Of a DNA stretch of 64,000 nucleotides, positions 1,028 to 64,000 are shown piece after piece. This DNA is from Parietichytrium sp. I65-24A (lineage: Eukaryota; Sar; Bigyra; Thraustochytrida; Thraustochytriidae): positions 1-64,000 of the forward strand of contig BLSF01000096.1 of NCBI GenBank assembly GCA_012862575.1, in the 5' to 3' direction. Within the stretch, counting starts at the first letter, position 1, and each line of letters begins with the position of its first letter. A program made the translations under genes and the position numbers. The notes below the pieces were generated by a model, which saw nothing but the letters and a program-made list of their open reading frames with translations, was not told the DNA's origin and searched no databases.

Positions 1028-1226
1028 CTGCTTGCTGTTTGCAGTTTGCTGTTTGCAGTTTGCAGTTTGCAGTTTGCTCTTTGCTGTTTGTAGTTTGCAG
1101 TTTGCTCTTTGCAGTTTGTAGTTTGCTGTTTGCAATTTGCAGTTTTGCTGTTTGCTGCTTGCTGTTTACAGTTTGCATTTTGCATTTTGCTGTTTGCAGT
1201 TTGCTATTTGCAGTTTTCTGTTTGGT
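1028..1226. repeat. heptanucleotide minisatellite (GCAGTTT and variants)
   Basis: About 28 head-to-tail copies of a 7-bp unit, mostly GCAGTTT, GCTGTTT and GCTCTTT, with some 6- and 8-bp slippage. It ends about 45 bp before the ATG of the triple-Hint gene, so it probably lies in the promoter or 5' UTR. Similar 7-bp arrays occur at 27904-27990, 33566-33640 and 63466-63511, all on the 5' side of genes. Confidence 0.9.
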
Positions 1227-1272: not shown

Positions 1273-4200
1273 ATGCCGGGAAAGCGTCGGCCCGGAGCGG
1301 ATGTCGTTTCGCTGCTCTTTCTTGTGGCTTGGCTCCTGCCGTTCTGCGCGAACGGAGCAGGTTGCTTCCTTGGTCACTCCTTAGTCTCTCTCGCGAACGG
1401 AACTGCGGTGGCGATCTCTTCCATTCGCGAGGGCGATGTAGTTGTCTCATGGGACGAGCGCACTGGAAAAGGCGCTAATGCCACAGTCCGCGGCGTTTTG
1501 CGATTCCCGAATCGTCGCGTTTCACGCATTGCCACGTCCCTTGGTCGCGACATCTTCGCCACGCCAGACCATCCTTTCTACAGCTCCCGGACGGGCGGAG
1601 TGGTTTCCCTGGAGCGGGATACAACGCTGCAGAATTACCAGCTGCTGGCTACGGAGTTCCTGCACCAGGGCGAGGTCCTCGAGGATGCGGCTGGCAGACC
1701 GGTCTCAGCATCGGTGGCTGGCACCTACGACGCAACCCAACTGGCTTCGATGCTTGCAACAACAGATTTACACCACGGACTGGCCCGAACAAACGACGCA
1801 GGAGTGTCGCGAGAGGTTTTGGCCACCAATTTGCGGCAGGGTCAGAATGTCGTAGAGGAGTCGTTGTCGCGAGAGACCGAGACGGTTGAGACCCTGACGC
1901 TGTGCCTGGAGGGTACGCACTGGTTTTACGTAGAGGGCGTTCGGGTACACAACAAGGGGTGCTTTGCGCCGCAAACGGGCGTGCTCATGGCGGACGGGCG
2001 GTCCCGTGCCATCGCGGATGTGCGTGCTGGCGACCGTGTGCTCTCCTGGGACGACGAACGTGGCAAGCCGGTGAACGTCACAGTTCGTGCGCTAACCGAG
2101 TTTGAACGTCACGAGATGGTGCATTTGGAGCTCGCAGACTTTAGTTCCGATTCTCGCGCTACGGTGCTGGCGACTCCAGACCATCCGTTCTGGAGTCTCC
2201 GCTCGGGAGTGCTGGTGTCGCTGGACCCTGGTCGAACAATGGAGGACTATGGGCTAGAAGCGCAGGCGATGTCTCATCGGAATGAGACGCTGGCAGACGC
2301 CTGGAACAAGCCGGTGCTCGTCACGGTTGGCGGCGTGACCATGTCCGACCGCCCGATGAAGGTAATGACTCTGTGCCTGGAAGGCCCGCACTGGTTCTAC
2401 GTTGGCGACTCGGGTACATTCGTGAGGGCTCACAATAAGGGCTGCTTTGTGGGAGACACTATGGTGACCATGGACGACGGATCAAGCAAGGAGATACAGC
2501 AAGTGAAGCCTGGCGACGCAGTGTTGTCCTGGAACGGCGATGAGCATGTCATTTCACACGTTTCAGACGTTTTGCGATACCGGCGCAGAGAACTGGTGGA
2601 GTTGCACATTGACGACACGGAGGCCAGGCAGACGCGCACGCTTTTCGCAACACCGGATCACCCGTTCTGGAGCCCAAGAACTGGATCTGTGGCCAGCTTT
2701 GAACCGGCCCAGTCGGAGGCGTTCTACGGACTCGGCTCCGTTGGTAGGTTGCAGCCCCACGACAAGTACTTGGGATTGCACGGACACGCCGTCGATGGGA
2801 AGCTAGTAGGCCGCCTGGACCTGGATTCCCCGGCACAGGTGTACACATTGGCGCTGAACGGGACGCACTACTTTTTCGCGGAAGGCGTGTTAGTGCACAA
2901 CAAAGGGACAGTCAGCAGCTCTGGCGGGTCGTGGTCCTCTTCGACATCATCTTCCACGTACTACTCGACAAGCACAGGCTCCAGCTACTACAGCTCAGGA
3001 TCGTATTATTATGCAAGCGGGTATCAATACACGGCCATTGTGCTCTATCGGCCGTACTACTATCCTCACAGCCCCACGTGCTCTGCAAATCCAACCAGCG
3101 CAGGATGCACCTCCGAATCAGAGGACTCAGTCGTGTGTGGGTGCCCCGATGGCACGCAGGCGGCTAACGAGGACTCGGACACGCTTTCCGAACTCGGAAC
3201 CACTGTCAAGAACGAATGGGGGTACGTGTTTTGCAACGTCTCTGAATACGAGGGTATGTGTATTGCGACGGACCGATCCAGCCGCTGTGTGCCCAGTAGG
3301 TACACCAACAAAAGCTTGACCACCAGCGACCCCGAATTCGTAATGATCACAAGCATTGCGGAGACGGAGTGTGCTTCGACTTTTGCCAACTGTAAAGCAG
3401 AGACGCCTTGCGCGCAGGCCCTGAGTGATCCAGCTTTTCAAAGCTTGCTTTACCGAGAGATACCTGCGAACGCCACGAATATCACGACTTCCTCGGAACT
3501 CACGGCCTTTACTACCTGCATGAGCTCTAACGTCAACTTTTGCGAGTGCGAATGGGAAATCTGCTCGGAGGCAGAGAGCAACAATGTGGTAGTCTACTTT
3601 TTGATTGGCTTGGGCTCGATTTGCGGAATTTCAATCTGCTGTTGTTGTTACAAAGTTCAACAGGCAAATCGGAGAAACGAGGCCAATGGTAAGAACTGGA
3701 TTCCAAACGTCGTCAACCCTGATCAGACGAATCGCCAGGCTAGCAAGGCTCAACAGGCATGTAGAAATTGTCTGTTGGAACCGGAACACTTTCTCTCAGG
3801 CCTCCTTCCTTCAGAGGTTGCTAAGCGCACCGGCGATCGAACCTACTACGAGGGATTCATTTGCGACCTGTGCGGCGCAGACTTTCCCCCAAATACGAAA
3901 CTTTTTCGATGCGAGATTTGCAAAGTCGATTTTTGCGGTGGCTGTGCCCAAAAGAAGAACAGTGTGATGGCTGAAGCGGCTGCAGACATGGAAAACGGCG
4001 GAGCGGGTTCTCAAGTTCTGGCCAATGAGTGTGTACATGAAAAGGAGAGAACTGTTGCCGCAAATCTGGCTGCTTCCATGCCGGCGTACCAGAACGGTTT
4101 TACTTGTGACAAATGTCTGAGCGCGTTTTCCGCCACAAGCCCTCTGTATCACTGTGCATTGTGCCGTGTGGATGTTTGCGAAGGTTGCCAGAACAGAAGA

Positions 4201-4518
4201 TATCCGTGCCAAAGCACCGCGGAGTGCTTGGCGGCAAGGCACTTGATGCGAAGAACAACCGCAGGTGAGTTGTACCAGACGGACCCAGCCTATAAACTTG
4301 GTGTCACTTGCGACCAATGCAAAGGGCGTTTTGATCATTCCATCATGATCAGCCATTGCGATACCTGCGGTTTCGACTTTTGCGACGGTTGCTTGAACCC
4401 TCTTGGGAGCGCCCACGCAGACGTTCCTGGCGCGCTGCCTGTTGCCGCGGCCTACCCTGTCGAGGATGACGACGACAGTAAGTCAAAAGCCGACGACAAG
4501 GCGCTGGCATATTACTAG
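1273..4518 (+). CDS. triple-Hint transmembrane protein with three cytoplasmic cysteine fingers
   Basis: A 1081-residue single-pass membrane protein of no family I can name. Residues 1-30 form a signal peptide. Three Hint (hedgehog/intein) domains follow back to back: C31-N227, C230-N388 and C391-N543. Each starts with Cys, has a TPDHP block (T97/H100, T301/H304, T460/H463, the TxxH motif of Hint folds) and ends in HN-K-G. Next come a Ser/Tyr-rich stretch (about 546-597), a Cys-rich region, a membrane segment (about 772-792) ending in four cysteines that may be palmitoylated, and a cytoplasmic tail with three C-x2-C-x12-C-x2-C-x4-C-x2-C fingers (864-891, 945-972, 1013-1040) resembling ZZ/DC1-type zinc modules. 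The open frame extends to a TTG at 1264, but the ATG at 1273 is the sensible start. By Hint precedent each leading Cys could form a thioester and cut the chain; which cuts occur is unknown. No intron is needed. Confidence 0.9.
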   Translation: MPGKRRPGADVVSLLFLVAWLLPFCANGAGCFLGHSLVSLANGTAVAISSIREGDVVVSWDERTGKGANATVRGVLRFPNRRVSRIATSLGRDIFATPDHPFYSSRTGGVVSLERDTTLQNYQLLATEFLHQGEVLEDAAGRPVSASVAGTYDATQLASMLATTDLHHGLARTNDAGVSREVLATNLRQGQNVVEESLSRETETVETLTLCLEGTHWFYVEGVRVHNKGCFAPQTGVLMADGRSRAIADVRAGDRVLSWDDERGKPVNVTVRALTEFERHEMVHLELADFSSDSRATVLATPDHPFWSLRSGVLVSLDPGRTMEDYGLEAQAMSHRNETLADAWNKPVLVTVGGVTMSDRPMKVMTLCLEGPHWFYVGDSGTFVRAHNKGCFVGDTMVTMDDGSSKEIQQVKPGDAVLSWNGDEHVISHVSDVLRYRRRELVELHIDDTEARQTRTLFATPDHPFWSPRTGSVASFEPAQSEAFYGLGSVGRLQPHDKYLGLHGHAVDGKLVGRLDLDSPAQVYTLALNGTHYFFAEGVLVHNKGTVSSSGGSWSSSTSSSTYYSTSTGSSYYSSGSYYYASGYQYTAIVLYRPYYYPHSPTCSANPTSAGCTSESEDSVVCGCPDGTQAANEDSDTLSELGTTVKNEWGYVFCNVSEYEGMCIATDRSSRCVPSRYTNKSLTTSDPEFVMITSIAETECASTFANCKAETPCAQALSDPAFQSLLYREIPANATNITTSSELTAFTTCMSSNVNFCECEWEICSEAESNNVVVYFLIGLGSICGISICCCCYKVQQANRRNEANGKNWIPNVVNPDQTNRQASKAQQACRNCLLEPEHFLSGLLPSEVAKRTGDRTYYEGFICDLCGADFPPNTKLFRCEICKVDFCGGCAQKKNSVMAEAAADMENGGAGSQVLANECVHEKERTVAANLAASMPAYQNGFTCDKCLSAFSATSPLYHCALCRVDVCEGCQNRRYPCQSTAECLAARHLMRRTTAGELYQTDPAYKLGVTCDQCKGRFDHSIMISHCDTCGFDFCDGCLNPLGSAHADVPGALPVAAAYPVEDDDDSKSKADDKALAYY

Positions 4519-45686: not shown

Positions 45687-48600
45687 CTAGGGGAAAGGAT
45701 TCCGCGAAGGGATCATCCTGACACCTCGGATGCCCTGAGTTGCAATTCCATGATGGCGGCTGTCTTTAGAAAGGCAAACCAGAAGATGGTCAACGAAATC
45801 ATCAATGGAAATGATGTTGTTTCCGGCAGTATCAAAGTGTGTCAAGAGCAGCTCCATATCAGCAGCCTTGATGGTGATTCCAAAGTTGAGAAGCGCGTCT
45901 TGGAACTCACTTGCAGCGATACCGAGATCAGCCTGGTTTGGCTTTGCATTTGCGACCAAAACTTGCTCTAATGAGCGGATTGGCTGCTCTGGTTTGTCTG
46001 GGCGACGAGTAGAAAGCTGCAGTTCGATGGCTTTCACGCAAGCATCCAGCTCCGACTTGTAGGTCGCGAACTCCTTGCCTAGGCGATCTTGCAACCATCT
46101 TTCACGTCGCTGACGCTCCTTCTCGCGTTCCTCCCGAGGGCGACCCATCTTCTCACGATATTCTGTGCCTGAAATTGGACGGAGGGATTGCTTGGCAGAC
46201 TGCGCCAAATTCACATGTGCATCAATGTTTGCTTTCTCTACCTTCTTAAGAAGCTCCTGCCTCTCGGAGACCTCTAAACGTAATTTCAACTCTGCCTCTT
46301 CGAGTTGGGATCGAACCCTCTTGAGATCGCTCTGCAGTCTCGTCTCTCTCGCATCTGTCACGCCCTTGAGCCTCTCATTCTCTACCCTAAGCGACTCAAT
46401 CTCCCTAATTTTGGCCTCATGGGTCTGCTGCAGTTTGACGAATTCTTCATAATCTTCATACCTTGCAAACCTTTTCGGGGGTTTTGGCTCCGATTCACGC
46501 GTCAACGCTTCGGCTTCATCCAGTTTGCGACGCTGCAGTTCAATCTCGGACCTAGTGTTCCTCAACCTCTCTTCATTGCTCTTCACTGTATCCTCTAGGC
46601 CGCGTCTTGCACGTTCAGATTCCGCGAGTTTGGCTTTCGTGTCCATCACCTCTTCTCGTAACCTGGACGCCAGAAGACTCAAGTCTCTTGCAGAACTTGC
46701 GTCTCGGAAAGCCAGATCAGCAGGGTCCCTTTGAACAGCAGTTTCCCTGGAAGCAATTTCCGGAGGAGGCATGCTCTCGTCTCCATTCTCCGTCTTAAAG
46801 AGGTCTTCCTCCACTGCGCTTTGCTCAGTCTCTACAGTGCTCTTCGAGTCGTCAAATCGTATTGAAAAGTGAAACTTGCCCACCTCGACCATCTTGTTGT
46901 TTACTATAGAAAGCCACCGATCAGCCGTGCGCCCTGGGCTATCCGTGATTGCAGAAAGCGGAAACTTGACAGATCCGACGACCTCTCGACCTTCTCCGAT
47001 CTTGGTGCGCGTTGTGTTAAGAACAGTGAACTCAACGTGCGGGGTCAAGCAATGGCTGAGTTGCAAGTGACCAAGCACCTTATCCCACGCGTCCTCGTCG
47101 TTGTATGGAAAAGAAGTTCCGATTTTGACGGTTTCTTTTTCCTCATGAATTGGATATGACTTCAAGATTCGCAATGTTTCGCTTTCGTAAATCATCTCCT
47201 CCGGCAGATCCTTTTCCTCAAGCGGCGCTTCATGCTCCATGAAGAAGGTCATTCCAAGAGCCGTGGCGCGAAATTTCCTCTTTGACACCCCTTGGGGCAC
47301 AAGATGAGATAGCTGGCCATGCTTTTTACCCTGATAGCCGAACTGCCGCCGCTTCGAGAGCTTCAGGCGATCCCTCTTTTTCACTTTGAGGGAGAACTCA
47401 TCGTTTGAGCGAGGATCGTAGGCCACTAGCCCAAATTTCGTGGGGTCATCGGCTAGGTGATGGACAAAGAGGATCACATACGTGTTCTGAACTTTGCAGA
47501 CCCGCGTAAGTACCAAGTTCCGGTTCGCCATTTTCACAGGTGTATACGGCATACTGAAGACGGCATTGAATGCAGGGTTCAGACCACCATCCCGTGCTAC
47601 TTGGCTGCAGAACTGCTCTTTTCCAGGCAAAACTTTAGCTTGCACAAGAGTGTGTCTCCTCTCGGAGATGTACGCAACAAACTCATTCCACGACATTTCT
47701 TCTCGAAAGTTTCCGTGCGTTTGCTCGAATACGACGCGGAGGATGCTTTTGATGGAGCAAAACGAACGCGTCACACGATTTCCCTGAGCTGCCCGAAGGG
47801 CTTCAAGAACCTGATTTTTGCAGTCCTGCAGATTGCCTTGATCAACGAGAAAGCGAATATTCCGCTCCGACACCTGGTAGAAGAACGGCAGTCCGCTACA
47901 AGAGTCGAGCGTCTTACGAATAAACTCAACTTTTGCAGGAGACTCTTTGATTGTTAGCGCCAAACGATCTCCTCCACTCCTCACGTCCTTGTTCAGTGAG
48001 AGCCTCTCAACAAGATCCTCTAAGAAGTGGCCATACTTGTCGCTTTCTGGCGCCACCCAGGTCGCACCAATTGGAGGCAAGCTGGCCAAATCTTCGTCAG
48101 AGATGGCGATTCCACAGAGCTCGAGCAATCGGCCATTCTCAGGATTATAGGCCTGGATATCAAGCGACGCCGGCTTTCCGGGGGAGTTGGCGTTTTTGTA
48201 GTCAAATTTTGGCGGGTCGTGAGCGAAAACATCGACCAGATACAGAGCCGGTTGCTCGCCGGTTTTGTGTCTCTGACGCAACATGTACCGCAGTTTGAGT
48301 TCAACGGCTGTAACGTTGTCGGGGCGAAGCATCTGGGCAAGAGTAGAGCGATTCACTCTCTTTGCTTTACAGAAAATCAGTGCATCGTCGACCAGCATCC
48401 TCATTTGCTGTGCAAGAGTAAGCTGAATGACTGGAGCACCAGCAACCGCATTATGCGTCGGCTCCACATTCGTGTTGAAGTCTTCAAGAATTTCTTCCAG
48501 CCGTTTGGCCTCCAGCTTTTCTATCTCCTCGGGAGACAAGCCAGGTGTTGGTGCGCCTTTAGGCTTTTCCTCTGCAAGCTTCAGCTTTGCGTGTGATCTC

Positions 48601-51600
48601 AAAATCGATTCCGAGAATTCACTTGCTTTCACGCCGTCGGAAGAAATGTCGCGGCGAACGCCCAACACTTCTTGCACAAACGCCGGAAGGGCAGCCATGA
48701 CCTTGTCCAAGTCAATTTTGGAGGCATCCTCCCCAGTGACCGTGACTTGAGTTGCTCCATTCATGGTGGAGAGAATTGATGCCAAAACCTTGCGCGCCGC
48801 GTCTGGGCTGTCGATTGCAGCCCCTGGAAGATGGTTAGCCCTTTCCAAGAACGTGTTCAGCTGTGCGGACTTTTCGAAAAAGTGAGCAACACGATAAACT
48901 CTAGGAGCAGCGACCTTCGCATCCATCGCAAACATAGTTCTATCCTCGCGGTTTGCGCAAGTTTTAGTGAGCAGGCGAAGCTGAGTTGCAAAGTCCCGCA
49001 ACTTGAACCAGTCTTGGCCAATTGACCAATCCTCCGTCACCTTACTTCTGTCTCTGCTTGGGCTAGCAATCGCTCCGAGCAACCTCGTCAACGGAATGTT
49101 CTCTTCAGCAATGCTTGCCGCATCCGTGTCTGCCTGGATAAAGTCGACGAACTCTGCGTGTTCGATGAACCCATCCCCATTTTTATCTAAATGAGTAACA
49201 AGGTGGTCGAGCTCGTCATCTTTCAGCTGCAAACCGAGAGTCTGGAGCGCTTGCCGGAACTCAGAACGGTCAATCATGCCAGTATTGTCCTGGTCGAACA
49301 TGCGAAACCAACCCTCCAGGTCCATGGAGCGCGATAGCTGCTCCTGTAATACTTGCGCTTCACCGCCGATTGGGACTACTCGCGAAAACACATGCCGAGC
49401 ACCCTTGGAGTTCTTGCGCTCAACAATTTCAAGCTTGGCTGTGGCCATTGCCGAGATGCTAGCATCGGTCTCCTCGATCCAGGCTCCAGGCTCTAAGTTG
49501 TCGCGTCCTAGGGTTATGGTCTGAAAAACAGTTTCAAACACGGTGGGAAAAATCAGGTCAATCAACTGCTTTTCGCCGAAAGCTGGATCTGCAGGGTGAA
49601 CCCAAGCATTCGGATTAGCCGGCAAAGTCGATGGAATTGGAGGCCCGGCAGGTGCAAGCGATGAAGATGAGCCAGCAGCAGCCGCTGCTCTTTTTGCTGC
49701 AGACTCTTTCTTCATGTTGTCGTATTCATCGTTTTGGAAACCAAAATCATCAATGACGGTGGCCTTTGCGAGATGCTTGAGTCGATCTTTTCGCATCTCC
49801 TTGGACATTGCCTTCATCTTTAAAAACTCCTCATTTCTCCTGCGATCTATTTCCAGCGCCGGGCTTGATGCGGGATGGACCACATTCACGACTTGGCCAA
49901 GCACATCGTCAAATTCATCGATCAGATCGCGTGGAGCTGCTGAGGGCACTCCCTTATCTGGCCCCGAGTTTGATGATATTTTTTGAAGAAATTGCTTGTC
50001 ATCAAAGCCCAAAGCTTCTTGTCTTTTGAGAGTTGGGCCGCTGTATGTCGGGAAATATGTCTTCAACACTGCGTCAATATACGCAATGCGATTGGGTACG
50101 TAAGCTGCAGAGTTGTTTGGCTTGACCGAATGGTGCGAATACTTTTGCTCTTTCACAGTGTTTTCTAAAGCATCTGGAGCGAGCGTAAAGGTGTCACACC
50201 AGATTTTTAGCTGTTGTTCCCAAAACATGGGCTGCTCAATTTGCGTTTCGTCGACGCGAACATAAGGAGCATCGACAAATCCAAAGTCTTTTCCAGCAAG
50301 TAGATCGTACGCGATTGGAATGCACGGGAGCTCAGGGTGCGAAAAGTACTGCCATGCCCGAACGATAACCTTGCGCGAAGAGATCTCCACAATAGGGCTG
50401 GTGTACACAGCATTAATTTTCCGTCGGTGGTAGTCTGTGTGAAACCATGATCGCGACTGGTCCGAGTTAGAAAGCATAAGATCTTGAGCTTCCAATGCAC
50501 TTATGTTGAGAACGCCTATGGCTGTTGCAGGCGGCCTGTACACCAGGTCATCCACTGGGACGGGGGGTTTTGAAGCAAAAAGCGACTCTCTGAGCATGTC
50601 CTGCTCAAATATTGAGCGAATTTTGTCACTGGCGACGGTCGACTCTGGGTAGCAAAGTGTCTCAAACTCCTTATCCGGAATCTCCGATACGCTGAATCCT
50701 AACGAGACCATCCTCTGTTTGAACTCCATTCGCGAAAGACGGGAGCTGTCCCTGAAAGTCTGCAGCGCGCGCTGTGTGTTTAGCCCCTTAAGCTTGGCTG
50801 CATCAAGTAGCTTCTCTTTAATTTCTTCGGCCTTGATAGCTTTTGCCTTGCGCTCTGTCACAACGTTCGGGTCGGTTTCAACTTCGCCTGGCGTGGTTCC
50901 AAGAGCCGGAGCTTCACCTGAAGCCGGGGCACCACTATCATTATCATTCGCGGGGTTTTTGGAAACTTTTGAGGCCCACCTGGCTGCCCCAATCAATGGG
51001 TTCCAGAGGCGCTCAAAGTCCACGGGCTCCTTTGCGTCATACCCGTGTAAGGAAAGCGCGTTTTCGATGAAAACTGGCTTGTCGAAAAACACAAAAAATG
51101 AAAACGAGTCCGTCACACCCCTGTCCAGAGTATGGGGAACAAGAAAGTAGTCCCCGACGTTCAGCACCACATCCCGGCTACATGTGGGGTGGAAAGTATA
51201 AGATGGCTGGCTCGCTCGCGGATTGCTTCCAGGAATAAAGTCCCTCGAGCTGGGCTTGGCCGGAAGTAAATGGTCTGTTGCATCGGCTTCGCAGATGGAA
51301 AAGGAGTACAACGTATCGTTGGCATATTTGCTGTTCTCCATGCGCCGATCATGTACAAAAAGGTGTATGAAAACGCGGGTCTGTGCATCGCGCACTCGAA
51401 ATCGAAATCGAGGGTTAAGAAACCAAGTTTCCTTATCAACGCTTCCACCAGCGGTCTGCTCAGACCATTTTGATGTGCCAAAATATCCACCTTTCCAGAG
51501 AGAAGTGCGATCTTTCGCATTTGGATTGCTCTGCGTTGCGGATATCAAAGAAGAAAAGCACTCCAAAAAGTCATTGAACCCCATGAGAAAATATGCAGGG

Positions 51601-52844
51601 CTGCTGATTTCTGCTGGCAAGAAGAGACTCTCTATTTCCTTGATGTTGTCCTTGTACTCCTGGCTATTTTCGCTCCACGGGCCGAGCCATTTCCCGAAAT
51701 TCCACGGATTGCGCATCAGCAAGACTTTCTTTCCTCCAATAAGTTTCGCCCCTTTAATGCAATAAGCATGTCGGCGCTCCAACCCCTTGATAGAGCTCGG
51801 CAGAATTGTGGACTCCGCATGGCTTAATACATCGCTTCTTATTGCTGAGCCACGGCCAAAACTGGCCGCGCGAGAGAAACTCCCGGGCTGGCTAAACAAA
51901 CGCGAGTCTGCCCTTCCAGTTTGCTCGATTTGCGAGTTAAGTGCTAACAAATCTTCTGGTTGGGAGATGCACCCCAAAACCGACTCATAATCCAACTGCT
52001 CTCGGATGCTCCGCCAGACATGATCTGCTTCGGGTAGACTTGGGTTTGTGATCTCATGAGAATTAAAGTGCAACAGAGTTCTTTCTGCACAAAGCCCTGT
52101 CAACTCCCGAAGGGCGACGTCCGCCTGGCCACCAGCAAGGCTGTCGTAACTGAAATGGAGTTTGGCGTATGCCTTCTCCAAAAGTGGCAGCCAGAGCTCG
52201 CTTTTATCTGTACACCTAGCAAAACAAGGCATGCCGTCTCCCGAGTCGAAGACTGGAATGCGATCATCAATCACCACATAGTGCCAAGAGCCATTCTTGA
52301 AAAATCTGCAAACGAAGATCCCATAGGACTTGAAATCATCCAGCCTCCAGAAGCAAGACTTTATAAGGTCTGCATTGTCCGAGGCAATCGCCACCGCGCT
52401 AATAAACCAGCAGTTCCCCAACTTTCCTTGTATAAGCGCGTTAGAGGCGATTTCTTTCTTGAATAGCTCTCCATTATTGCAAAAAAATCCCTCCTTCCCA
52501 GTGTCGGTGTCCATGCCCTTGATGCCCCCACGATACTTCGGGCGAGCCCATCGAATCTCGTTCATCTTCGGATACCCGGGCACAGCCGCTCGGCCATTAC
52601 GATATATTGACCTTTCGCCGCTGGGGTCGGATTTGGTTGGCCCAAAGTCCGGGTCCTCCCAGCGCTGCAAGCGCTGCTCGTTCATCGTCTTTATGGCACC
52701 TTCCACAAACGTCTTTACTTCGTCTTCCACCATCTTGAGCAGGTCTTCCGCATCCTTTGGATGTTTTTCGCGGCGTACGTCATTGGAGCAAATCACCGTT
52801 CTCCGCTTCAAGTGTACAATATCATCTTGACTTGTGGGCGCCAT
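45687..52844 (-). CDS. giant calpain-type cysteine protease with EF-hands
   Basis: A 2385-residue calpain. The protease core is complete: QGKLGNCWF with C145, RHAYCIKG with H359 and RNPW with N379. A calpain C2-like domain III follows (NPRFRFRVRD ... FLVPHTLDRGV). Two EF-hands lie at about residues 1175-1245 (DQDNTGMIDRSEF and DKNGDGFIEHAEF). Near 1910-2010 is a C2-like segment (VKIGTSFPYNDEDAWDKV to FHFSIRFDD), then a long coiled coil (about 2050-2220) and a degenerate C-terminal EF pair (about 2310-2370). Calcium control of proteolysis is therefore likely. It is several times longer than classical calpains (~700 residues). The frame extends to a TTG at 52880; ATG at 52842-52844 is used. Confidence 0.93.
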   Translation of the reverse strand: MAPTSQDDIVHLKRRTVICSNDVRREKHPKDAEDLLKMVEDEVKTFVEGAIKTMNEQRLQRWEDPDFGPTKSDPSGERSIYRNGRAAVPGYPKMNEIRWARPKYRGGIKGMDTDTGKEGFFCNNGELFKKEIASNALIQGKLGNCWFISAVAIASDNADLIKSCFWRLDDFKSYGIFVCRFFKNGSWHYVVIDDRIPVFDSGDGMPCFARCTDKSELWLPLLEKAYAKLHFSYDSLAGGQADVALRELTGLCAERTLLHFNSHEITNPSLPEADHVWRSIREQLDYESVLGCISQPEDLLALNSQIEQTGRADSRLFSQPGSFSRAASFGRGSAIRSDVLSHAESTILPSSIKGLERRHAYCIKGAKLIGGKKVLLMRNPWNFGKWLGPWSENSQEYKDNIKEIESLFLPAEISSPAYFLMGFNDFLECFSSLISATQSNPNAKDRTSLWKGGYFGTSKWSEQTAGGSVDKETWFLNPRFRFRVRDAQTRVFIHLFVHDRRMENSKYANDTLYSFSICEADATDHLLPAKPSSRDFIPGSNPRASQPSYTFHPTCSRDVVLNVGDYFLVPHTLDRGVTDSFSFFVFFDKPVFIENALSLHGYDAKEPVDFERLWNPLIGAARWASKVSKNPANDNDSGAPASGEAPALGTTPGEVETDPNVVTERKAKAIKAEEIKEKLLDAAKLKGLNTQRALQTFRDSSRLSRMEFKQRMVSLGFSVSEIPDKEFETLCYPESTVASDKIRSIFEQDMLRESLFASKPPVPVDDLVYRPPATAIGVLNISALEAQDLMLSNSDQSRSWFHTDYHRRKINAVYTSPIVEISSRKVIVRAWQYFSHPELPCIPIAYDLLAGKDFGFVDAPYVRVDETQIEQPMFWEQQLKIWCDTFTLAPDALENTVKEQKYSHHSVKPNNSAAYVPNRIAYIDAVLKTYFPTYSGPTLKRQEALGFDDKQFLQKISSNSGPDKGVPSAAPRDLIDEFDDVLGQVVNVVHPASSPALEIDRRRNEEFLKMKAMSKEMRKDRLKHLAKATVIDDFGFQNDEYDNMKKESAAKRAAAAAGSSSSLAPAGPPIPSTLPANPNAWVHPADPAFGEKQLIDLIFPTVFETVFQTITLGRDNLEPGAWIEETDASISAMATAKLEIVERKNSKGARHVFSRVVPIGGEAQVLQEQLSRSMDLEGWFRMFDQDNTGMIDRSEFRQALQTLGLQLKDDELDHLVTHLDKNGDGFIEHAEFVDFIQADTDAASIAEENIPLTRLLGAIASPSRDRSKVTEDWSIGQDWFKLRDFATQLRLLTKTCANREDRTMFAMDAKVAAPRVYRVAHFFEKSAQLNTFLERANHLPGAAIDSPDAARKVLASILSTMNGATQVTVTGEDASKIDLDKVMAALPAFVQEVLGVRRDISSDGVKASEFSESILRSHAKLKLAEEKPKGAPTPGLSPEEIEKLEAKRLEEILEDFNTNVEPTHNAVAGAPVIQLTLAQQMRMLVDDALIFCKAKRVNRSTLAQMLRPDNVTAVELKLRYMLRQRHKTGEQPALYLVDVFAHDPPKFDYKNANSPGKPASLDIQAYNPENGRLLELCGIAISDEDLASLPPIGATWVAPESDKYGHFLEDLVERLSLNKDVRSGGDRLALTIKESPAKVEFIRKTLDSCSGLPFFYQVSERNIRFLVDQGNLQDCKNQVLEALRAAQGNRVTRSFCSIKSILRVVFEQTHGNFREEMSWNEFVAYISERRHTLVQAKVLPGKEQFCSQVARDGGLNPAFNAVFSMPYTPVKMANRNLVLTRVCKVQNTYVILFVHHLADDPTKFGLVAYDPRSNDEFSLKVKKRDRLKLSKRRQFGYQGKKHGQLSHLVPQGVSKRKFRATALGMTFFMEHEAPLEEKDLPEEMIYESETLRILKSYPIHEEKETVKIGTSFPYNDEDAWDKVLGHLQLSHCLTPHVEFTVLNTTRTKIGEGREVVGSVKFPLSAITDSPGRTADRWLSIVNNKMVEVGKFHFSIRFDDSKSTVETEQSAVEEDLFKTENGDESMPPPEIASRETAVQRDPADLAFRDASSARDLSLLASRLREEVMDTKAKLAESERARRGLEDTVKSNEERLRNTRSEIELQRRKLDEAEALTRESEPKPPKRFARYEDYEEFVKLQQTHEAKIREIESLRVENERLKGVTDARETRLQSDLKRVRSQLEEAELKLRLEVSERQELLKKVEKANIDAHVNLAQSAKQSLRPISGTEYREKMGRPREEREKERQRRERWLQDRLGKEFATYKSELDACVKAIELQLSTRRPDKPEQPIRSLEQVLVANAKPNQADLGIAASEFQDALLNFGITIKAADMELLLTHFDTAGNNIISIDDFVDHLLVCLSKDSRHHGIATQGIRGVRMIPSRNPFP

Positions 52845-53099
52845 ATTGCCCTTTCCTGCGGCGTGTGGCAGATTCGCCAATCCAATTACTCTGCCGGTCG
52901 ACCAACCGTCCTTCCTGGCGGAAACCTAGTCCCTTCAAACCCACTCGAGATTTCAACTCTGGCGCTGACTCTGCAGAGCAAAGCCGTCCCCGTTGCGATG
53001 CAGAGTTCCTTCCTTCCTTCCTTCCGCTGGTCTCTAAGCACTTTTCCGCGCCCCAGAGAGTTGCAAAGCCCTTTCCCGCGTAACTTCTTTCGTGGCCAG

Positions 53100-57992: not shown

Positions 57993-60496
57993 ATGGAGGT
58001 GGGGGTTCGGGTGGTGGTGACAGGGAATGGAGGGGCGGGGACCTCCCCGAGCATAGTCGTCAAAGTTGACCATGCAAAGTCGTTCATGGCATTGGACAAG
58101 ATTTTGGCGTCGGGAAAGCAGAGCGATGAGTTCAAAATGTGGTATAAGTATGCCGCAGGAGCCGCAGGTCAAAGCTGTGTGTGGGCCGCAGTCGTAAACG
58201 CCGGAGAAGGCACACAGCGGTCGGCTTGCCAATTTGGATGGCTTAGGGGAACCAAGGTGAAGGCCATGCTTGCCACGCAGCTCGAATACTGTGGGGGGCT
58301 CGCAGGGCTGGTATTCGGACTTGGAGAAAGAGGGAGCGGCACTCTAGCGGTTCGCGGTCCCACTGGAATGGAGGAATACGTCAAAGCCTTCGGTAGATTT
58401 GTGAAACGCGACTGGCCCAAATTGAACGTCAAAGTCTTGCAGAGCTCAGATTGCCATCGGGCCAAATTCGAAGACGACGGTCTGGTGGAGATCCTCACCG
58501 TCACTCTTACCACTGCAAACGTTGCTCCAGAGTGCCCACTCCCTAACTATTGCCACTGGTGTGGTCTGGACGCTGCTCAGCACCAGTCCGATGAAGAGGT
58601 TGAGGAAGGGAGTGACGACGAAGAGAGTGAGGAGGAGAGCGACGATGAAGAAAGCGAGGAGGAGAGCGACGACGAAGAAAGCAATGAACAGAGTGACGGG
58701 GATGATGACTTGCAAGATGAAAAGGAGGAGAAGCAGTTGGGTGCACTTTGTTACATTCTCCGCTGCTGGAACAAGATTACTTATGACGGGAAATCTCGCG
58801 CAAAGGACGCTGAGGTGTGCGGTTTTTTCGCTGTTGTTGACTGTCCAACCGTTGCATGTATTCCAAGCCTAGTGAAGAGCGTTCACTTTCAAGGCGGGAG
58901 GAGCTGCACACACTCTCTTCAAGCAATCTTTCATCTTGGGCCACGAACTGTTATTCAAGACCAGCGATACAAAGAGTGGATGGCTTCCCTCGCGACAACT
59001 AGACATATTATGGTCCGTCACAATTCCGAGGATATGGACGGCTGTGCAGATCCTTTCCCGTCGTCTCTTCGCTGGGCTGCCAGGCTGCGTACGGGAACGC
59101 CGCAGATGTTTCCGAAGGAGGACACCATCGACCTGAGGCACGCTGATAGAAGAGAGGAAGAGAAGATTGTTCAGCTCGGGGAAGGGAATGCGCACTATTT
59201 GAATGGCAGTCTGAATGTGCAGGTCGAGTTTCGCGCAGCTGTGGATGGGTCCACGGTTATACTCGTCAACAGTTCCGAGGCCGAGACGCCCGTTCGCCAA
59301 GCAAAATCAATTCGCGAAGTAGAAACCGAAGCCGCAAATTTGGCCGCACGAATATCGGATTCCAACGAGATTGAGATTGAGGACGATTCGGGCTCGGCAA
59401 GCCCAATTACGAAGAGAGCGAAGACATCTAGCCTACGACGCAGTCCTGCGCTCACGTTCCTTGGGACAGGTTCTGCAAAACCATCAAAGTTGCGAGGTTG
59501 TAGCGCGATTTTGGTTCATTTTCGCCATGGGTTCGCCCTCTTAGATGTTGGGGAAGGGACATACGGGCAACTCTTGAGGCTCTACGGCCCAGAAGACACG
59601 CGCGAAATCCTTCGTGGACTACAGTGGATTTGGGTCAGCCATAAGCATTTGGATCACCATGGCGGAATTGGATTAATCATTAAGGAGCGTGCAATGCTGG
59701 GCTGCCAAGATCCTCTTCCGGTAATCGCTCCTCCGGAAATGGCCCTATTTCTGTCAGAGCATCTTGAATTGCTCTTTTCGTCAACCGAAGCTGCAAAGTC
59801 GTCGTACCGGTTCAGAGACTGTTTGGGGGTTGACAGGGACATTCACGGCGCTCGAAGCTGCCCAGTCTATCACTGCAAAGACGCGTATGCCGTTGGGTTC
59901 CCGCTTCAGCTGCAAGATTTGAGTTGGATCTGGCTAGTTTATTCGGGGGATACACGCCCCTGCCCAAATATGTGGGCACATCTAGGCAAACCTTCTGCGT
60001 TCTTGGCATCGCCGTACATATGTTGGCGATACGCCGCTCTTATTCACGGTAAGTGTTGGTACTGAGAAGCGACGATGTTGCAGTTTCATCCAATACCGCA
60101 AGTGATGTGTTTCAACTGACAACCTTTTCTTCTACGTGGTGAAAATTATCCTTTGTGTTATACTTATATAAAATGCCAAAAGAGGCAACCTTCGATGATA
60201 GCATGATAAAGCATGCCAAGGCGAAGAAGCACAGTACAACTTCAGAAGCGCTCAAAGCTGCAGGGGCGATGGGCTGCGACGTTGTATTCTTGACTCATTT
60301 CAGCCAACGTTATCCAAGATTTGGCGCGACCGACAGTCGGTCGGGTCACGAGCGCATCCCAACGATCGTTGCGTCCGACCTCATGGTAGCGGATCTTCCG
60401 GTGGACATTTCGTCGCTCTATCTTACAGCTGGGCAAATGGCAGAGGCTGCGGCTCGACTGGAGGAGTTTCAACTGGGGACAAAAGAGGCCGTCTAG
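57993..60496 (+). CDS. long-form tRNase Z (ELAC2/Trz1 type), two exons
   Basis: Zinc endonuclease that removes 3' trailers from precursor tRNAs. Exons are 57993-60048 and 60183-60496 with a 134-bp GT-AG intron; joining gives ALIHEATFDDSM as in the family. The product is 789 residues. The N-terminal half is the degenerate metallo-beta-lactamase copy (GEGTQR, then GGLAGLVFGLG). The catalytic half starts at FLGTGSAKPS, with the metal motif HKHLDHH at 550-556, LVYSGDTRPCP and LTHFSQRYP. Two oddities: an acidic DDEESEEES repeat in the N-terminal half (DNA 58590-58710), and about 15 extra residues between CPN and ALIHE. The frame opens at GTG 57966; ATG 57993 is used. Its last 74 bases overlap the facing gene. 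Confidence 0.92.
60049..60182 (+). other. spliceosomal intron in tRNase Z
   Basis: GTAAGT donor and AAAAG acceptor; 134 bp, AT-rich toward the 3' side. Removing it restores the conserved IHEATF motif. Confidence 0.9.
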
Positions 60497-62819
60497 AGGC
60501 TTGGTCCACGAGTTCTGCGTCCTGGGAGAAGCCAATGATGAGACTAGTCGTCGGGTCACGGATCATGCAGTTGTTCCGCACCCTGACGTGTCCATGATTC
60601 CAGCCGTTAAAGCGCTTGAGCGCTTCCACTGCCCGAGACGAGCCGAAGAAGGGGTGAGCAACGCAGTCATCCGTAAACCGATGGCCCATTGTCACACAGC
60701 AAGTGTCGTTGATGACCATGGAGTGCCCCTCGTCTAAGCAAATGCTAAATATGGCTTGCAAGGGCATAAGTTGTGCTCGGCACAGGTCGATGGGAAATAC
60801 CCATCTTCCCTCCACGAAAACGGGGTGATACGGGGTGATGACAAGCCCTGCCTCAAGTGTTACCATATGCGTTCCCGTTTCAAAATCCAGAACTGTTTCA
60901 AGCACACACTTCACCTCTGCCGTACCTGTCGGACTGTGAGGCGAGTGCACTTTGTCACCTCGCACAAGGGCCCCGACAGGCTTTAGAGAGCCGTCGGCCA
61001 TTCTGGCGGTGCAATGGCTGGCAAAACATGGATTCATGCTGTTCAAGAAGAATCGGGCCATGTCATCTTGCACAATTTGCGCTGTGGGTACGCTCCCCTG
61101 GCCATATCTTCCGGTTTCCTTGATCGAGGGTGACGGCGCTGGGATAGTGATGAATGCTTTCTCTGCGTCTTTGCGGAAGTTGTCAAACAATGCTCCATTG
61201 CCATACATTTGAACACCAGGGTCCTTAAAGTTGTTGCAGTACTGAAGTGCATGCGCAAGGAACAGGGAAGGAAGGTAGTGTCTACCCCATTTTTTCATAT
61301 AATCAGTCCTCTGTCCTGCAATGGAAATCTGACCCTCAACATCCTTGATGAGCCCTTCTATTTGTTCCTTGTGCGGGGCCAGAGCGGCTGCGGTCTTCAG
61401 TTTTTCAAGTTCTGCTAGAGTTTCAGCAAAAACGGGTGCTTTCACCAACCCGGGGTAGGTGTTTATGATCTTCTGTACACAGTCAAGCAGTTCGTCGCGG
61501 GCTCTTGTAACCTTGACGAGGCCGCCTAACTGCACAGACAGCGTCTCTCCAGGTTGAATGTAGCAGCTCTGACGCACACGTCTGGCGCTGCTATCTCGTG
61601 CGCTGAACCGGGCGGTCGCTTGTAGTATGGGCTCGTCCCATGCGGAGTCCAACTCCATTGTCTCAACGTCCACGATGAAGGAGCGAGACTGGCCAAAGCA
61701 CACAGAACCAATCCTCACCTCCAAAAGTTCCGACTCGGACAGCGTGGTTGGAAGCTGGGACAACACCGGGGTTCGTGAGCTGATCTTGGCCCCTCCAAGC
61801 GCTTGCACATCTATTATCGTGCTTTGCGAGAACGCCGTTCTTGCTCTCGCATATGCGTGGATGAAGGTGGTGCCCACCATCCCAATTTCTGGAATGAATG
61901 AGAATGCTCCGTCTCCCTCCATGGCAATCGAGTACAGGAGATCGGTGTCTAGAGAATATCCGAATCCAAACGTGCTGATGCTGAAAGGAGGTGAATTTTC
62001 TCCAAACTCTTGTTGAAGGTACCCTTTGAGAGTCTCCATGTGTCCTCGGGGCGGCTCGATGTTTGGTTCACCATCTGTGAGCAAAAAAATGTGGTTCATC
62101 GTCCCTTCACATTTGGAGGAAGTAACAACCTCCATTCCGGCCTTGAGTCCCGCCCAGAGGTTTGTCGAGTTTTTCGGCTCAAGACTCTCGATTCTGTCAA
62201 GAAGGGTGTTTTTGCCTCGTTCTGTCGTCAAAGTGGGACTGCACACCACAGATGCATTTGTGTGGAACGACACAATGGACATGCTGTCGTCCGGTCCCAT
62301 CATCGCAAGAATTGCTTTCACAGAGTGCTTGACAATATCCAGTCTGGTGAGTCCGAAAGACTCGCTCGTGTTGCCTCCATTTTGAACTTCAGCTTCGAGG
62401 CCCATCGAACCGCTGATGTCAATCACGCAGCAAATATGCGCTGGCTGCAAGTTGCCGACAGCGCGCTGCGAGGGCGGCGCGACATTCACCAAAAAGCTCT
62501 CCACATTTGGCAGCATCGAATATTTGGAGTCCGAACGAGGCAGAGCTGCGACCATCACCTTGAGCGTCGTTTCAGCTGGCAACAAGGAGTCGGCCTCGAC
62601 GAAGGACCCCGTGGGCGTCCGGGAGCCATGCTCCTTTAGATAGGTCTCAATACTCTCCCTCTCGTACACGAACCCTTTGCGATCGATTACAGGCTCTCTT
62701 GCGCGCTCTCCCGACATGGAGCAGTAGTACATGGACTCCTCTTCACACTCTGTGTTGTCTGGAGAGCCCGACAGTCGGCGTGGCACCGACCGCCTTGCAA
62801 TGTTGCGCAAGAAGTTCAT
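60423..62819 (-). CDS. U-box / VWA / Hint (VWint) protein
   Basis: A 798-residue intracellular protein. A U-box (about 30-95; SMSGERAREPVIDRKGFVYE) predicts E3 ubiquitin ligase activity. A von Willebrand A domain (about 128-320) has the MIDAS motif DISGSMG (D134, S136, S138). A helical linker leads to a Hint domain of the VWint type from C598 (CFASHCTARMADGSLKPV), with TPYHP near 660, then GHRFTDDCVAHPFFGSS and a closing RDPTTSLIIGF segment. VWA-Hint proteins occur across eukaryotes, and in most the Hint chemistry is untested. No signal peptide. The frame opens at GTG 62834; ATG at 62817-62819 is used. Its 3' end overlaps tRNase Z coding sequence by 74 bp. Confidence 0.92.
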   Translation of the reverse strand: MNFLRNIARRSVPRRLSGSPDNTECEEESMYYCSMSGERAREPVIDRKGFVYERESIETYLKEHGSRTPTGSFVEADSLLPAETTLKVMVAALPRSDSKYSMLPNVESFLVNVAPPSQRAVGNLQPAHICCVIDISGSMGLEAEVQNGGNTSESFGLTRLDIVKHSVKAILAMMGPDDSMSIVSFHTNASVVCSPTLTTERGKNTLLDRIESLEPKNSTNLWAGLKAGMEVVTSSKCEGTMNHIFLLTDGEPNIEPPRGHMETLKGYLQQEFGENSPPFSISTFGFGYSLDTDLLYSIAMEGDGAFSFIPEIGMVGTTFIHAYARARTAFSQSTIIDVQALGGAKISSRTPVLSQLPTTLSESELLEVRIGSVCFGQSRSFIVDVETMELDSAWDEPILQATARFSARDSSARRVRQSCYIQPGETLSVQLGGLVKVTRARDELLDCVQKIINTYPGLVKAPVFAETLAELEKLKTAAALAPHKEQIEGLIKDVEGQISIAGQRTDYMKKWGRHYLPSLFLAHALQYCNNFKDPGVQMYGNGALFDNFRKDAEKAFITIPAPSPSIKETGRYGQGSVPTAQIVQDDMARFFLNSMNPCFASHCTARMADGSLKPVGALVRGDKVHSPHSPTGTAEVKCVLETVLDFETGTHMVTLEAGLVITPYHPVFVEGRWVFPIDLCRAQLMPLQAIFSICLDEGHSMVINDTCCVTMGHRFTDDCVAHPFFGSSRAVEALKRFNGWNHGHVRVRNNCMIRDPTTSLIIGFSQDAELVDQASRRPLLSPVETPPVEPQPLPFAQL

Positions 62820-64000
62820 CTTTTCTCTGCACACCAGCCAACAATCCTCGAAGTCTGCCTCTTGTGCAGTTTTGAGTCTGCTTTCACTTTCTCACGCACA
62901 ACATCATACGATTGGATTGCACACCCTTCCAATGCTCAGTACAGTAAGGGAGCTCGTACTAATACAACTAATACTGCCCGCGAATTTTTATTGGAAAAGT
63001 TTGATTGACTAACCACGTCAGAGCCTTTTGCCTGAAATTGCCTGAATCTGAAGAATCTGAAAATAATCTGAATGAAAACAGTTAGAATTTACAGTTTAAG
63101 TTAGTCCAGCTTTGTGGTAATCTGGGTTGTCCACGTGACGCAAGATCTGCATCTCTTGTCATCTCTTGTCCTCTAAATCCTCTAGACTCTTTTCTGTGAA
63201 GGACTACAGACTTTTTTTCATTCCAGTACGGTACTTGAGTACAGTACCGATCTTAGTGCGAGTATCTATATCATTTAGCGAGTACTAACATACCTCCCCG
63301 AAAGATTTCGCTTATGCGTTGGAGTAAAAGTCTCGTGGGTTGCCGACCCTTAGCTGCGCTGTACATCGCCCTATGTTCGATGGCCCCAAAAAAATAACAC
63401 GACGGTCACAGGATGAGTGATGACATGTTATCATAATTCGTGCAAGTGATTTAAAGTTTGCGTTTCAGAAATCCAGAATCCAGAATCCAGAATCCAGAAT
63501 CCAGAACCCAGATGATGCCGTGGCGGAATTTGGAGTTCAGAATTCAGGATACAGAATTTCACTGGTTCCATGTTTGCACGTGCTTTAGAGTACCAGTATA
63601 CATATCGGTACCGTTGTAGGGGCCAGGAAAGTTTCGTGATGTCCCGCATCTCCCGTGATCTTGAAAAGGACAGAACGTTCGACAAAATTGAGGAATCTTG
63701 CTGGCTGGTCTGTTCGCTGAACTTGTAGCAATGGCGTCATGTGTGGACGAACTTCTCCTTGAACCATTGGACTGTAGTACTAGGAAGAGCAACCTGATTT
63801 GCTGAGTTCAAAGTTCTCTGATTTGGACTACTTCGTAAGCAGCCTGGTTGTGAACATTGTGAAAGGCGTGAAGCCACGGGGTGCAGCGTAAACAAACCCT
63901 ATCGGAAGGTGGGGTGGGCGAAATCACTATATTTCCGGAAAGGAACCCATCGATAGCAGTATGCATACAGAATAGAGTCAAATAGAGACATGGTCTGTTC
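62820..64000. other. 5' flank of the U-box/VWA/Hint gene, no supported gene
   Basis: Contains a GGTACTTGAGTACAGTACC palindromic stretch (about 63230-63247) and a 7-bp ATCCAGA array (63466-63511). Short frames were not accepted. Confidence 0.55.
63466..63511. repeat. heptanucleotide minisatellite (ATCCAGA)
   Basis: About six 7-bp units, with decayed copies to about 63555. Confidence 0.9.

What the first reader, a model, noticed from the sequence alone, without database searches (positions are those of the whole stretch)
1273..4518. Three tandem Hint domains on one membrane protein with a finger-bearing tail
The sequence shows a signal peptide, three full Hint domains back to back, a Ser/Tyr- and Cys-rich stalk, one membrane helix and three cytoplasmic Cys fingers. 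Known Hint proteins (hedgehog, VWint, BIL, inteins) normally carry a single Hint at the end of another domain. Here the Hints themselves are the ectodomain of a receptor-like protein. If each leading Cys can form a thioester, the ectodomain could shed in steps or become attached to a nucleophile such as a sterol or a matrix amine, signalling through the tail. That mechanism is inference.
Basis: partly seen in the sequence, partly recalled or inferred. Interest (0 to 1): 0.85.

Follow-up and report, generated by a model that had tools for sequence, protein, structure and literature searches.

The report
Triple self-cleaving-domain membrane protein
A gene of an unidentified microbial eukaryote encodes a probable membrane protein whose outer part begins with three back-to-back domains of a self-cutting (intein-like) kind, which suggests that it cuts or re-joins its own outer part, although no activity was tested here.

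Summary
Window 1273-4518 is one open frame of 1081 residues: signal-like leader, three complete Hint domains (C31-G229, C230-G390, C391-G545), Ser/Tyr-rich then Cys-rich stalk, one membrane helix, three Cys fingers. A search found one copy in the 42.5 Mb assembly. A model of Hint 3 (pLDDT 94.1) matches best the BIL2 domain of the Tetrahymena BUBL1 locus, ahead of inteins and hedgehog. All three Hints keep Cys1, TxxH, F-block His and terminal His-Asn; the next residues are Lys-Gly in 3 of 3. Best mechanism (inferred): self-processing at Asn|Lys and Gly|Cys bonds that cuts the array from the stalk. Bolder, open reading: transfer of the upstream chain to the +1 Lys or an outside amine. Tandem Hints are not unique: four viral contigs carry them. 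What looks new is their place, as the ectodomain of a finger-tailed membrane protein. No eukaryotic protein collection could be searched.

The parts
1273..1356 (+). Leader with hydrophobic core (aa 1-28), signal-peptide-like; likely cut after G28 or G30
   Evidence: hydropathy; cut site by the -3/-1 rule, recalled, no program run
1363..1959 (+). Hint 1, aa 31-229: C31, T97/H100, H216, H226-N227, K228-G229; carries an insert of about 45 aa before the F block
1960..2442 (+). Hint 2, aa 230-390: C230, T301/H304, H373, H387-N388, K389-G390
2443..2907 (+). Hint 3, aa 391-545: C391, T460/H463, H532, H542-N543, K544-G545
   Evidence: model pLDDT 94.1; best PDB match BIL2
2908..3078 (+). Ser/Tyr-rich stalk (aa 546-602)
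   Evidence: composition; aa 546-770 match no Pfam family at E<=0.1
3079..3570 (+). Cys-rich region (aa 603-766), 14 Cys
3583..3651 (+). Single membrane helix (about aa 771-793), ending in CCCC
   Evidence: highest hydropathy of the protein
3760..3945 (+). Cys finger 1 (aa 830-891)
4024..4188 (+). Cys finger 2 (aa 918-972)
4207..4392 (+). Cys finger 3 (aa 979-1040)

Best explanation
A type I membrane protein whose ectodomain begins with three tandem BIL-like Hint domains that process themselves in the secretory pathway or at the surface. Shown: three Hint domains with unchanged Cys1, TxxH, F-block His and terminal His-Asn, each followed by Lys-Gly; in the first two cases the next Cys1 follows directly. 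Inferred: each Hint makes an N-S acyl shift at Gly|Cys1 and cyclises its last Asn, cutting Asn|Lys. With Lys instead of Cys, Ser or Thr at +1, ordinary splicing is not expected and cleavage is the default. The decisive cut would be N543|K544, which parts the Hint array from a 538-residue stalk, helix and finger fragment. The array may leave, or stay bound and be removed later, as the self-cut GAIN domain does in adhesion GPCRs (analogy). The fingers would be the cytoplasmic signalling or trafficking end.
For: Matches to Hint, PT-HINT, Vint and intein models over cut-off for the whole protein. Model of Hint 3, pLDDT 94.1, pTM 0.88; PDB ranks 1-4 are BIL2 chains (best E 1.7e-12, TM 0.79-0.89), rank 5 the C. 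thermocellum BIL; the sequence profile agrees, BIL2 E 1.3e-23. The six catalytic columns are unchanged in 3 of 3 domains that are only 36-42% identical to each other (chance 1.9e-4). A-type BILs are described as often lacking the +1 nucleophile and prone to C-terminal cleavage (PMC5874633, passages). NxS/T sites: 9 in aa 29-770, 0 in aa 794-1081.
Against: No activity, expression or proteomic data. Scored alone, Hint 3 passes no Pfam cut-off and no segment passes the intein N-terminal cut-off. The F-block Asp of class 1 inteins (recalled) is Thr in all three, as read. Full processing leaves little upstream cargo, so the need for three domains is unexplained. Leader and orientation rest on hydropathy; the sequon test is weak (ectodomain count reached in 3.9% of shuffles; 0 or fewer in the tail in 22%). 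An oxidising lumen could block Cys1. The full-length model failed (pLDDT 33.9).
Confidence: 0.55

Rival explanations
1. Covalent transfer rather than simple cutting: the thioester at each Cys1 is attacked by an amine, either the side chain of the +1 Lys (isopeptide bond) or an outside amine on matrix or partner, so that the array joins chains.
For: +1 Lys in 3 of 3, whereas the 4 plasmid PT-HINTs read have C, Q, S, S. The best structural match, BIL2, is reported to form a Lys isopeptide bond (PMC8616854, passages).
Against: The Lys reported for BIL2 lies in the following ubl5; whether it is at +1 was not seen. Basic +1 residues also occur in the viral arrays (R in four, K in three), so Lys may be a packing preference. 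Before Hint 1 only about two residues remain to be transferred.
Confidence: 0.17
2. The Hints are an adhesive or structural ectodomain that no longer reacts; the residues are kept for folding.
For: No cargo domain upstream; weak single-domain scores.
Against: All six catalytic columns are unchanged among domains that differ at most other positions.
Confidence: 0.18
3. Self-excision: all three Hints splice out, leaving a stalk protein that begins with the short linkers.
For: Both intein-like ends on every domain and two-residue linkers; A-type BILs splice in some cases (PMC5874633, passages).
Against: +1 is Lys in all three; only a few residues would be saved.
Confidence: 0.07
4. Assembly artefact that joins unrelated pieces.
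For: The gene lies near the end of its contig (C96, 107,511 bases).
Against: One open frame of 1081 aa, with domains joined in frame at matching borders.
Confidence: 0.03

Closest known systems
BIL2 domain of the BUBL1 locus, Tetrahymena thermophila (PDB 6TMM, 6Y75)
   Same: Best structural and profile match to Hint 3; a eukaryotic BIL in a multi-domain precursor
   Different: Flanked by ubiquitin-like domains (PMC8616854); here Hints abut one another before a stalk and membrane helix
Tandem Hints of four viral contigs (L005; L023/L045; L046; L047)
   Same: Two clear Hints in a row, preceded by a degenerate Hint-like stretch ending in His-Asn; His-Asn, a linker of 2-5 residues, then Cys
   Different: They form the C-terminal end of another protein; the first stretch has no Cys; Pfam counts three PT-HINT stretches only in L005
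Bacterial polymorphic-toxin HINT (PT-HINT)
   Same: Sequence similarity: Hints 2+3 as query match 68 of 72,556 plasmid records, 62 of them Streptomyces; 22 of the 30 listed rows are annotated polymorphic toxin-type HINT
   Different: One Hint in each of the 4 stretches read, before other C-terminal sequence; +1 is C, Q, S, S
Hedgehog Hog domain and protist Hog proteins (PMC2362128)
   Same: Secreted Hint proteins of eukaryotes
   Different: Hint is C-terminal; hedgehog structures rank 19 and 24; no terminal His-Asn in Hog (recalled)
Other eukaryotic Hint architectures: VWA-Vint; AIG1-Hint and CARD-AIG1-Hint; secreted HINT of chromerids, Cryptosporidium and Gregarina
   Same: Hint combined with other domains in eukaryotes (PMC2362128, PMC8778642, PMC12373286, PMC4501334; passages)
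   Different: No tandem Hint array is described in the passages seen
GAIN domain of adhesion GPCRs (analogy only)
   Same: Self-cutting ectodomain of a membrane receptor (abstract starts)
   Different: Unrelated fold and chemistry (recalled)

Membership tests
Hint superfamily | Hint fold, motif A Cys and motif B TxxH | tested here: met
   fold for Hint 3; Hints 1 and 2 by sequence only
A-type BIL | Terminal His-Asn without Cys, Ser or Thr at +1 | tested here: met
   HNKG in 3 of 3
A-type BIL | Self-cleavage or splicing | not testable with these tools
   needs biochemistry
A-type BIL | Lies in variable parts of bacterial proteins | tested here: not met
   the assembly holds eukaryotic 18S ends; called BIL-like here, not a BIL, though the eukaryotic BIL2 carries that name
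Intein | Cys, Ser or Thr at +1 | tested here: not met
   Lys in 3 of 3
Hedgehog/Hog | C-terminal Hint after a secreted domain, with sterol recognition region | tested here: not met
   Hints are N-terminal; the sterol region was not searched for as such
Vint | VWA and Vwaint before Vint | tested here: not met
   no VWA or Vwaint among the 11 families at E<=1
PT-HINT polymorphic toxin | Toxin domain after the Hint | tested here: not met
   another Hint or the stalk follows; no other family over cut-off
BUBL | Ubiquitin-like domains beside the BILs | tested here: not met
   none among the families listed
ZZ zinc finger (tail) | Match to a ZZ model | tested here: not met
   none at E<=1; C1_2 24.5 and FYVE 23.5 bits are below cut-off; profile matches 6tly E 1.1e-5 and HERC2 ZZ 0.0012, so ZZ-like at most

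The most novel reading that the evidence does not exclude
A receptor-like protein with a built-in triple acyl-transfer device: each Hint loads the chain before it as a thioester and passes it to the conserved +1 Lys or to an outside amine, so that the surface protein forms isopeptide-linked branches or covalent bonds with matrix or neighbours, and the state is read by the fingered tail.
Probability: 0.12. Interest if true: 0.88.

Novelty: new variant of a known kind. Interest (0 to 1): 0.6.

Why it matters
If the array is active, a microbial eukaryote uses intein-type chemistry three times over to remodel the outside of a membrane protein. That would tie inteins and BILs to surface-protein processing outside hedgehog, give a natural test of whether Lys at +1 acts as a nucleophile, and offer a compact ligase-like tool.

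Tried and rejected
Full-length structure without an alignment: useless (pLDDT 33.9). Relatives: viral scan with the whole protein, 2 stretches, none confirmed; with the Hint alignment led by Hint 1, 69 viral stretches, 7 loci confirmed, and 63 genome contigs stretches, none confirmed; led by Hint 3, 65 genome contigs stretches, 2 confirmed, and 81 viral stretches, 18 loci confirmed, some on contigs already held. Several of these read like ordinary inteins in phage enzymes (reading only). Scan with the L005 Hint: 9 stretches, 1 locus, itself. Phage records with Hints 2+3: 1 of 50,697, 26.8% identity, E 3e-4. Tree of 19 Hints: Hint 1 with Hint 2 at 84/89, Hint 3 unresolved, 10 of 16 inner forks open, long branches; no origin drawn. 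A Cys1-C211/C368 disulphide lock: considered, not testable without coordinates. Organism: 18S searches gave only 3' ends; not identified.

Literature: eight completed searches; seen were listings with abstract starts (capped) plus passages or one section of eight papers. None of what I saw describes this architecture. The phrases 'tandem hint', 'multiple hint domains' and 'three hint domains' occur in none of the 27 papers.

Full report
What is there. The frame 1273-4518 (+) encodes 1081 aa. The whole protein finds only itself in the 42,540,916-base, 172-contig assembly at E <= 0.001, and the finger region only itself at E <= 0.1; these six-frame searches score the best candidates only, so divergent copies may be missed. 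The Hint family finds only this gene's three domains there. The Vint family finds these three and one more gene, the VWA-Vwaint-Vint protein at 60423-62891 (-) of the window.

The Hints. Each runs from Cys to HNKG: C31-G229, C230-G390, C391-G545, so that in Hints 1 and 2 the next Cys1 follows Lys-Gly directly. Pairwise identity is 36-42%, with 37 invariant columns of 146 ungapped ones. Invariant are Cys1, the T and H of TPDH, the F-block His, the last His and Asn, and also the Lys and Gly. Which six are catalytic is taken from recalled intein motifs. The chance that six given columns are all invariant is 1.9e-4; adding Lys and Gly after the fact gives 9.2e-6. Single-segment scores are modest and Hint 3 passes no Pfam cut-off alone.

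Structure. An alignment of 14 rows, 3 from the window and 11 from fetched loci, gave a model of Hint 3 with pLDDT 94.1 and pTM 0.88. Foldseek against the PDB gave 54 matches at E <= 0.001: ranks 1-4 BIL2, rank 5 the C. thermocellum BIL, then inteins, hedgehog at ranks 19 and 24 (50 rows shown). The sequence profile search ranks BIL2 first too.

Relatives. Four viral contigs (L005; L023/L045; L046; L047) carry two clear Hints in a row. L005 and L023 are 36% identical over 661 alignment columns, so they are one protein family. Before the first clear Hint lies a degenerate stretch that ends in His-Asn-Ala-Pro and has no Cys, as read; Pfam counts three PT-HINT stretches in L005 but one or two in the other three, so a third Hint there is likely in L005 and not shown in the others. 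The second joint reads HNR, 2-4 more residues, then Cys; three of the four proteins end at HNK. P0001 and L023 also share phrog_21587, of unknown function; L005 does not reach it. In plasmids, Hints 2+3 match 68 records; 22 of 30 listed rows are annotated polymorphic toxin-type HINT, and the four that I fetched have C, Q, S and S at +1. The passages of PMC8616854 state that BIL2 sits between two ubiquitin-like domains and splices with formation of a Lys isopeptide bond; that BUBL proteins hold several BILs is recalled.

The rest. Residues 546-770 match no Pfam family at E <= 0.1. The membrane helix, about 771-793, ends in four Cys, which could be palmitoylated (inference). The fingers share the spacing C-x2-C-x12-C-x2-C-x4-C-x2-C (Cys positions). 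Their profile matches 6tly (E 1.1e-5) and the HERC2 ZZ domain (0.0012); no Pfam cut-off is reached. NxS/T sites are 9 in aa 29-770 and 0 in aa 794-1081 (a stricter count gives 8 in all), which fits the topology but is weak.

How it may work. Two scissile bonds flank each Lys-Gly linker: Asn|Lys and, for the first two, Gly|Cys. Lys at +1 argues against ordinary splicing and for cleavage or aminolysis. The cut after Hint 3 has the largest effect. A cut before C31 frees about two residues if the leader is removed after G28 (recalled rule). Whether the outcome is shedding, a held heterodimer or transfer is inference. Sterol attachment is weakened because these domains are BIL-like.

Limits. No eukaryotic sequence collection was at hand, so whether other protists share this order of domains is unknown; novelty is judged against eight literature searches and the collections named. 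The organism was not identified.

Noticed in passing
window 60423-62891 (-): A VWA, Vwaint, Vint protein of a known eukaryotic family, with a U-box match below cut-off (16.5 vs 21.4 bits): a second Hint-superfamily gene about 56 kb from the first.
   Followed up: partly
L005, L023/L045, L046, L047: A family of viral proteins of 744-784 aa with tandem Hints at the C-terminus and an N-terminal part of about 450 aa, including a degenerate Hint-like stretch, without Pfam match outside the Hints; three end exactly at HNK.
   Followed up: partly
window 1032-1224 and 937-968: A 7-base tandem repeat (TTGCAGT, 27.4 copies, 79% matches) just before the gene, and CATACTTT x4.
   Followed up: no
L016, L017 (own assembly): 18S rRNA 3' ends; in L016, at the end of contig C16, preceded by what reads like the end of a retrotransposon polyprotein (reading only).
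   Followed up: no
window 45687-52925 (-): A 2412-residue frame with calpain and EF-hand domains.
   Followed up: no
window 1363-2907: Hints 1 and 2 have a second Cys (C211, C368) at matching columns where Hint 3 has Ala; a possible redox lock on Cys1.
   Followed up: no
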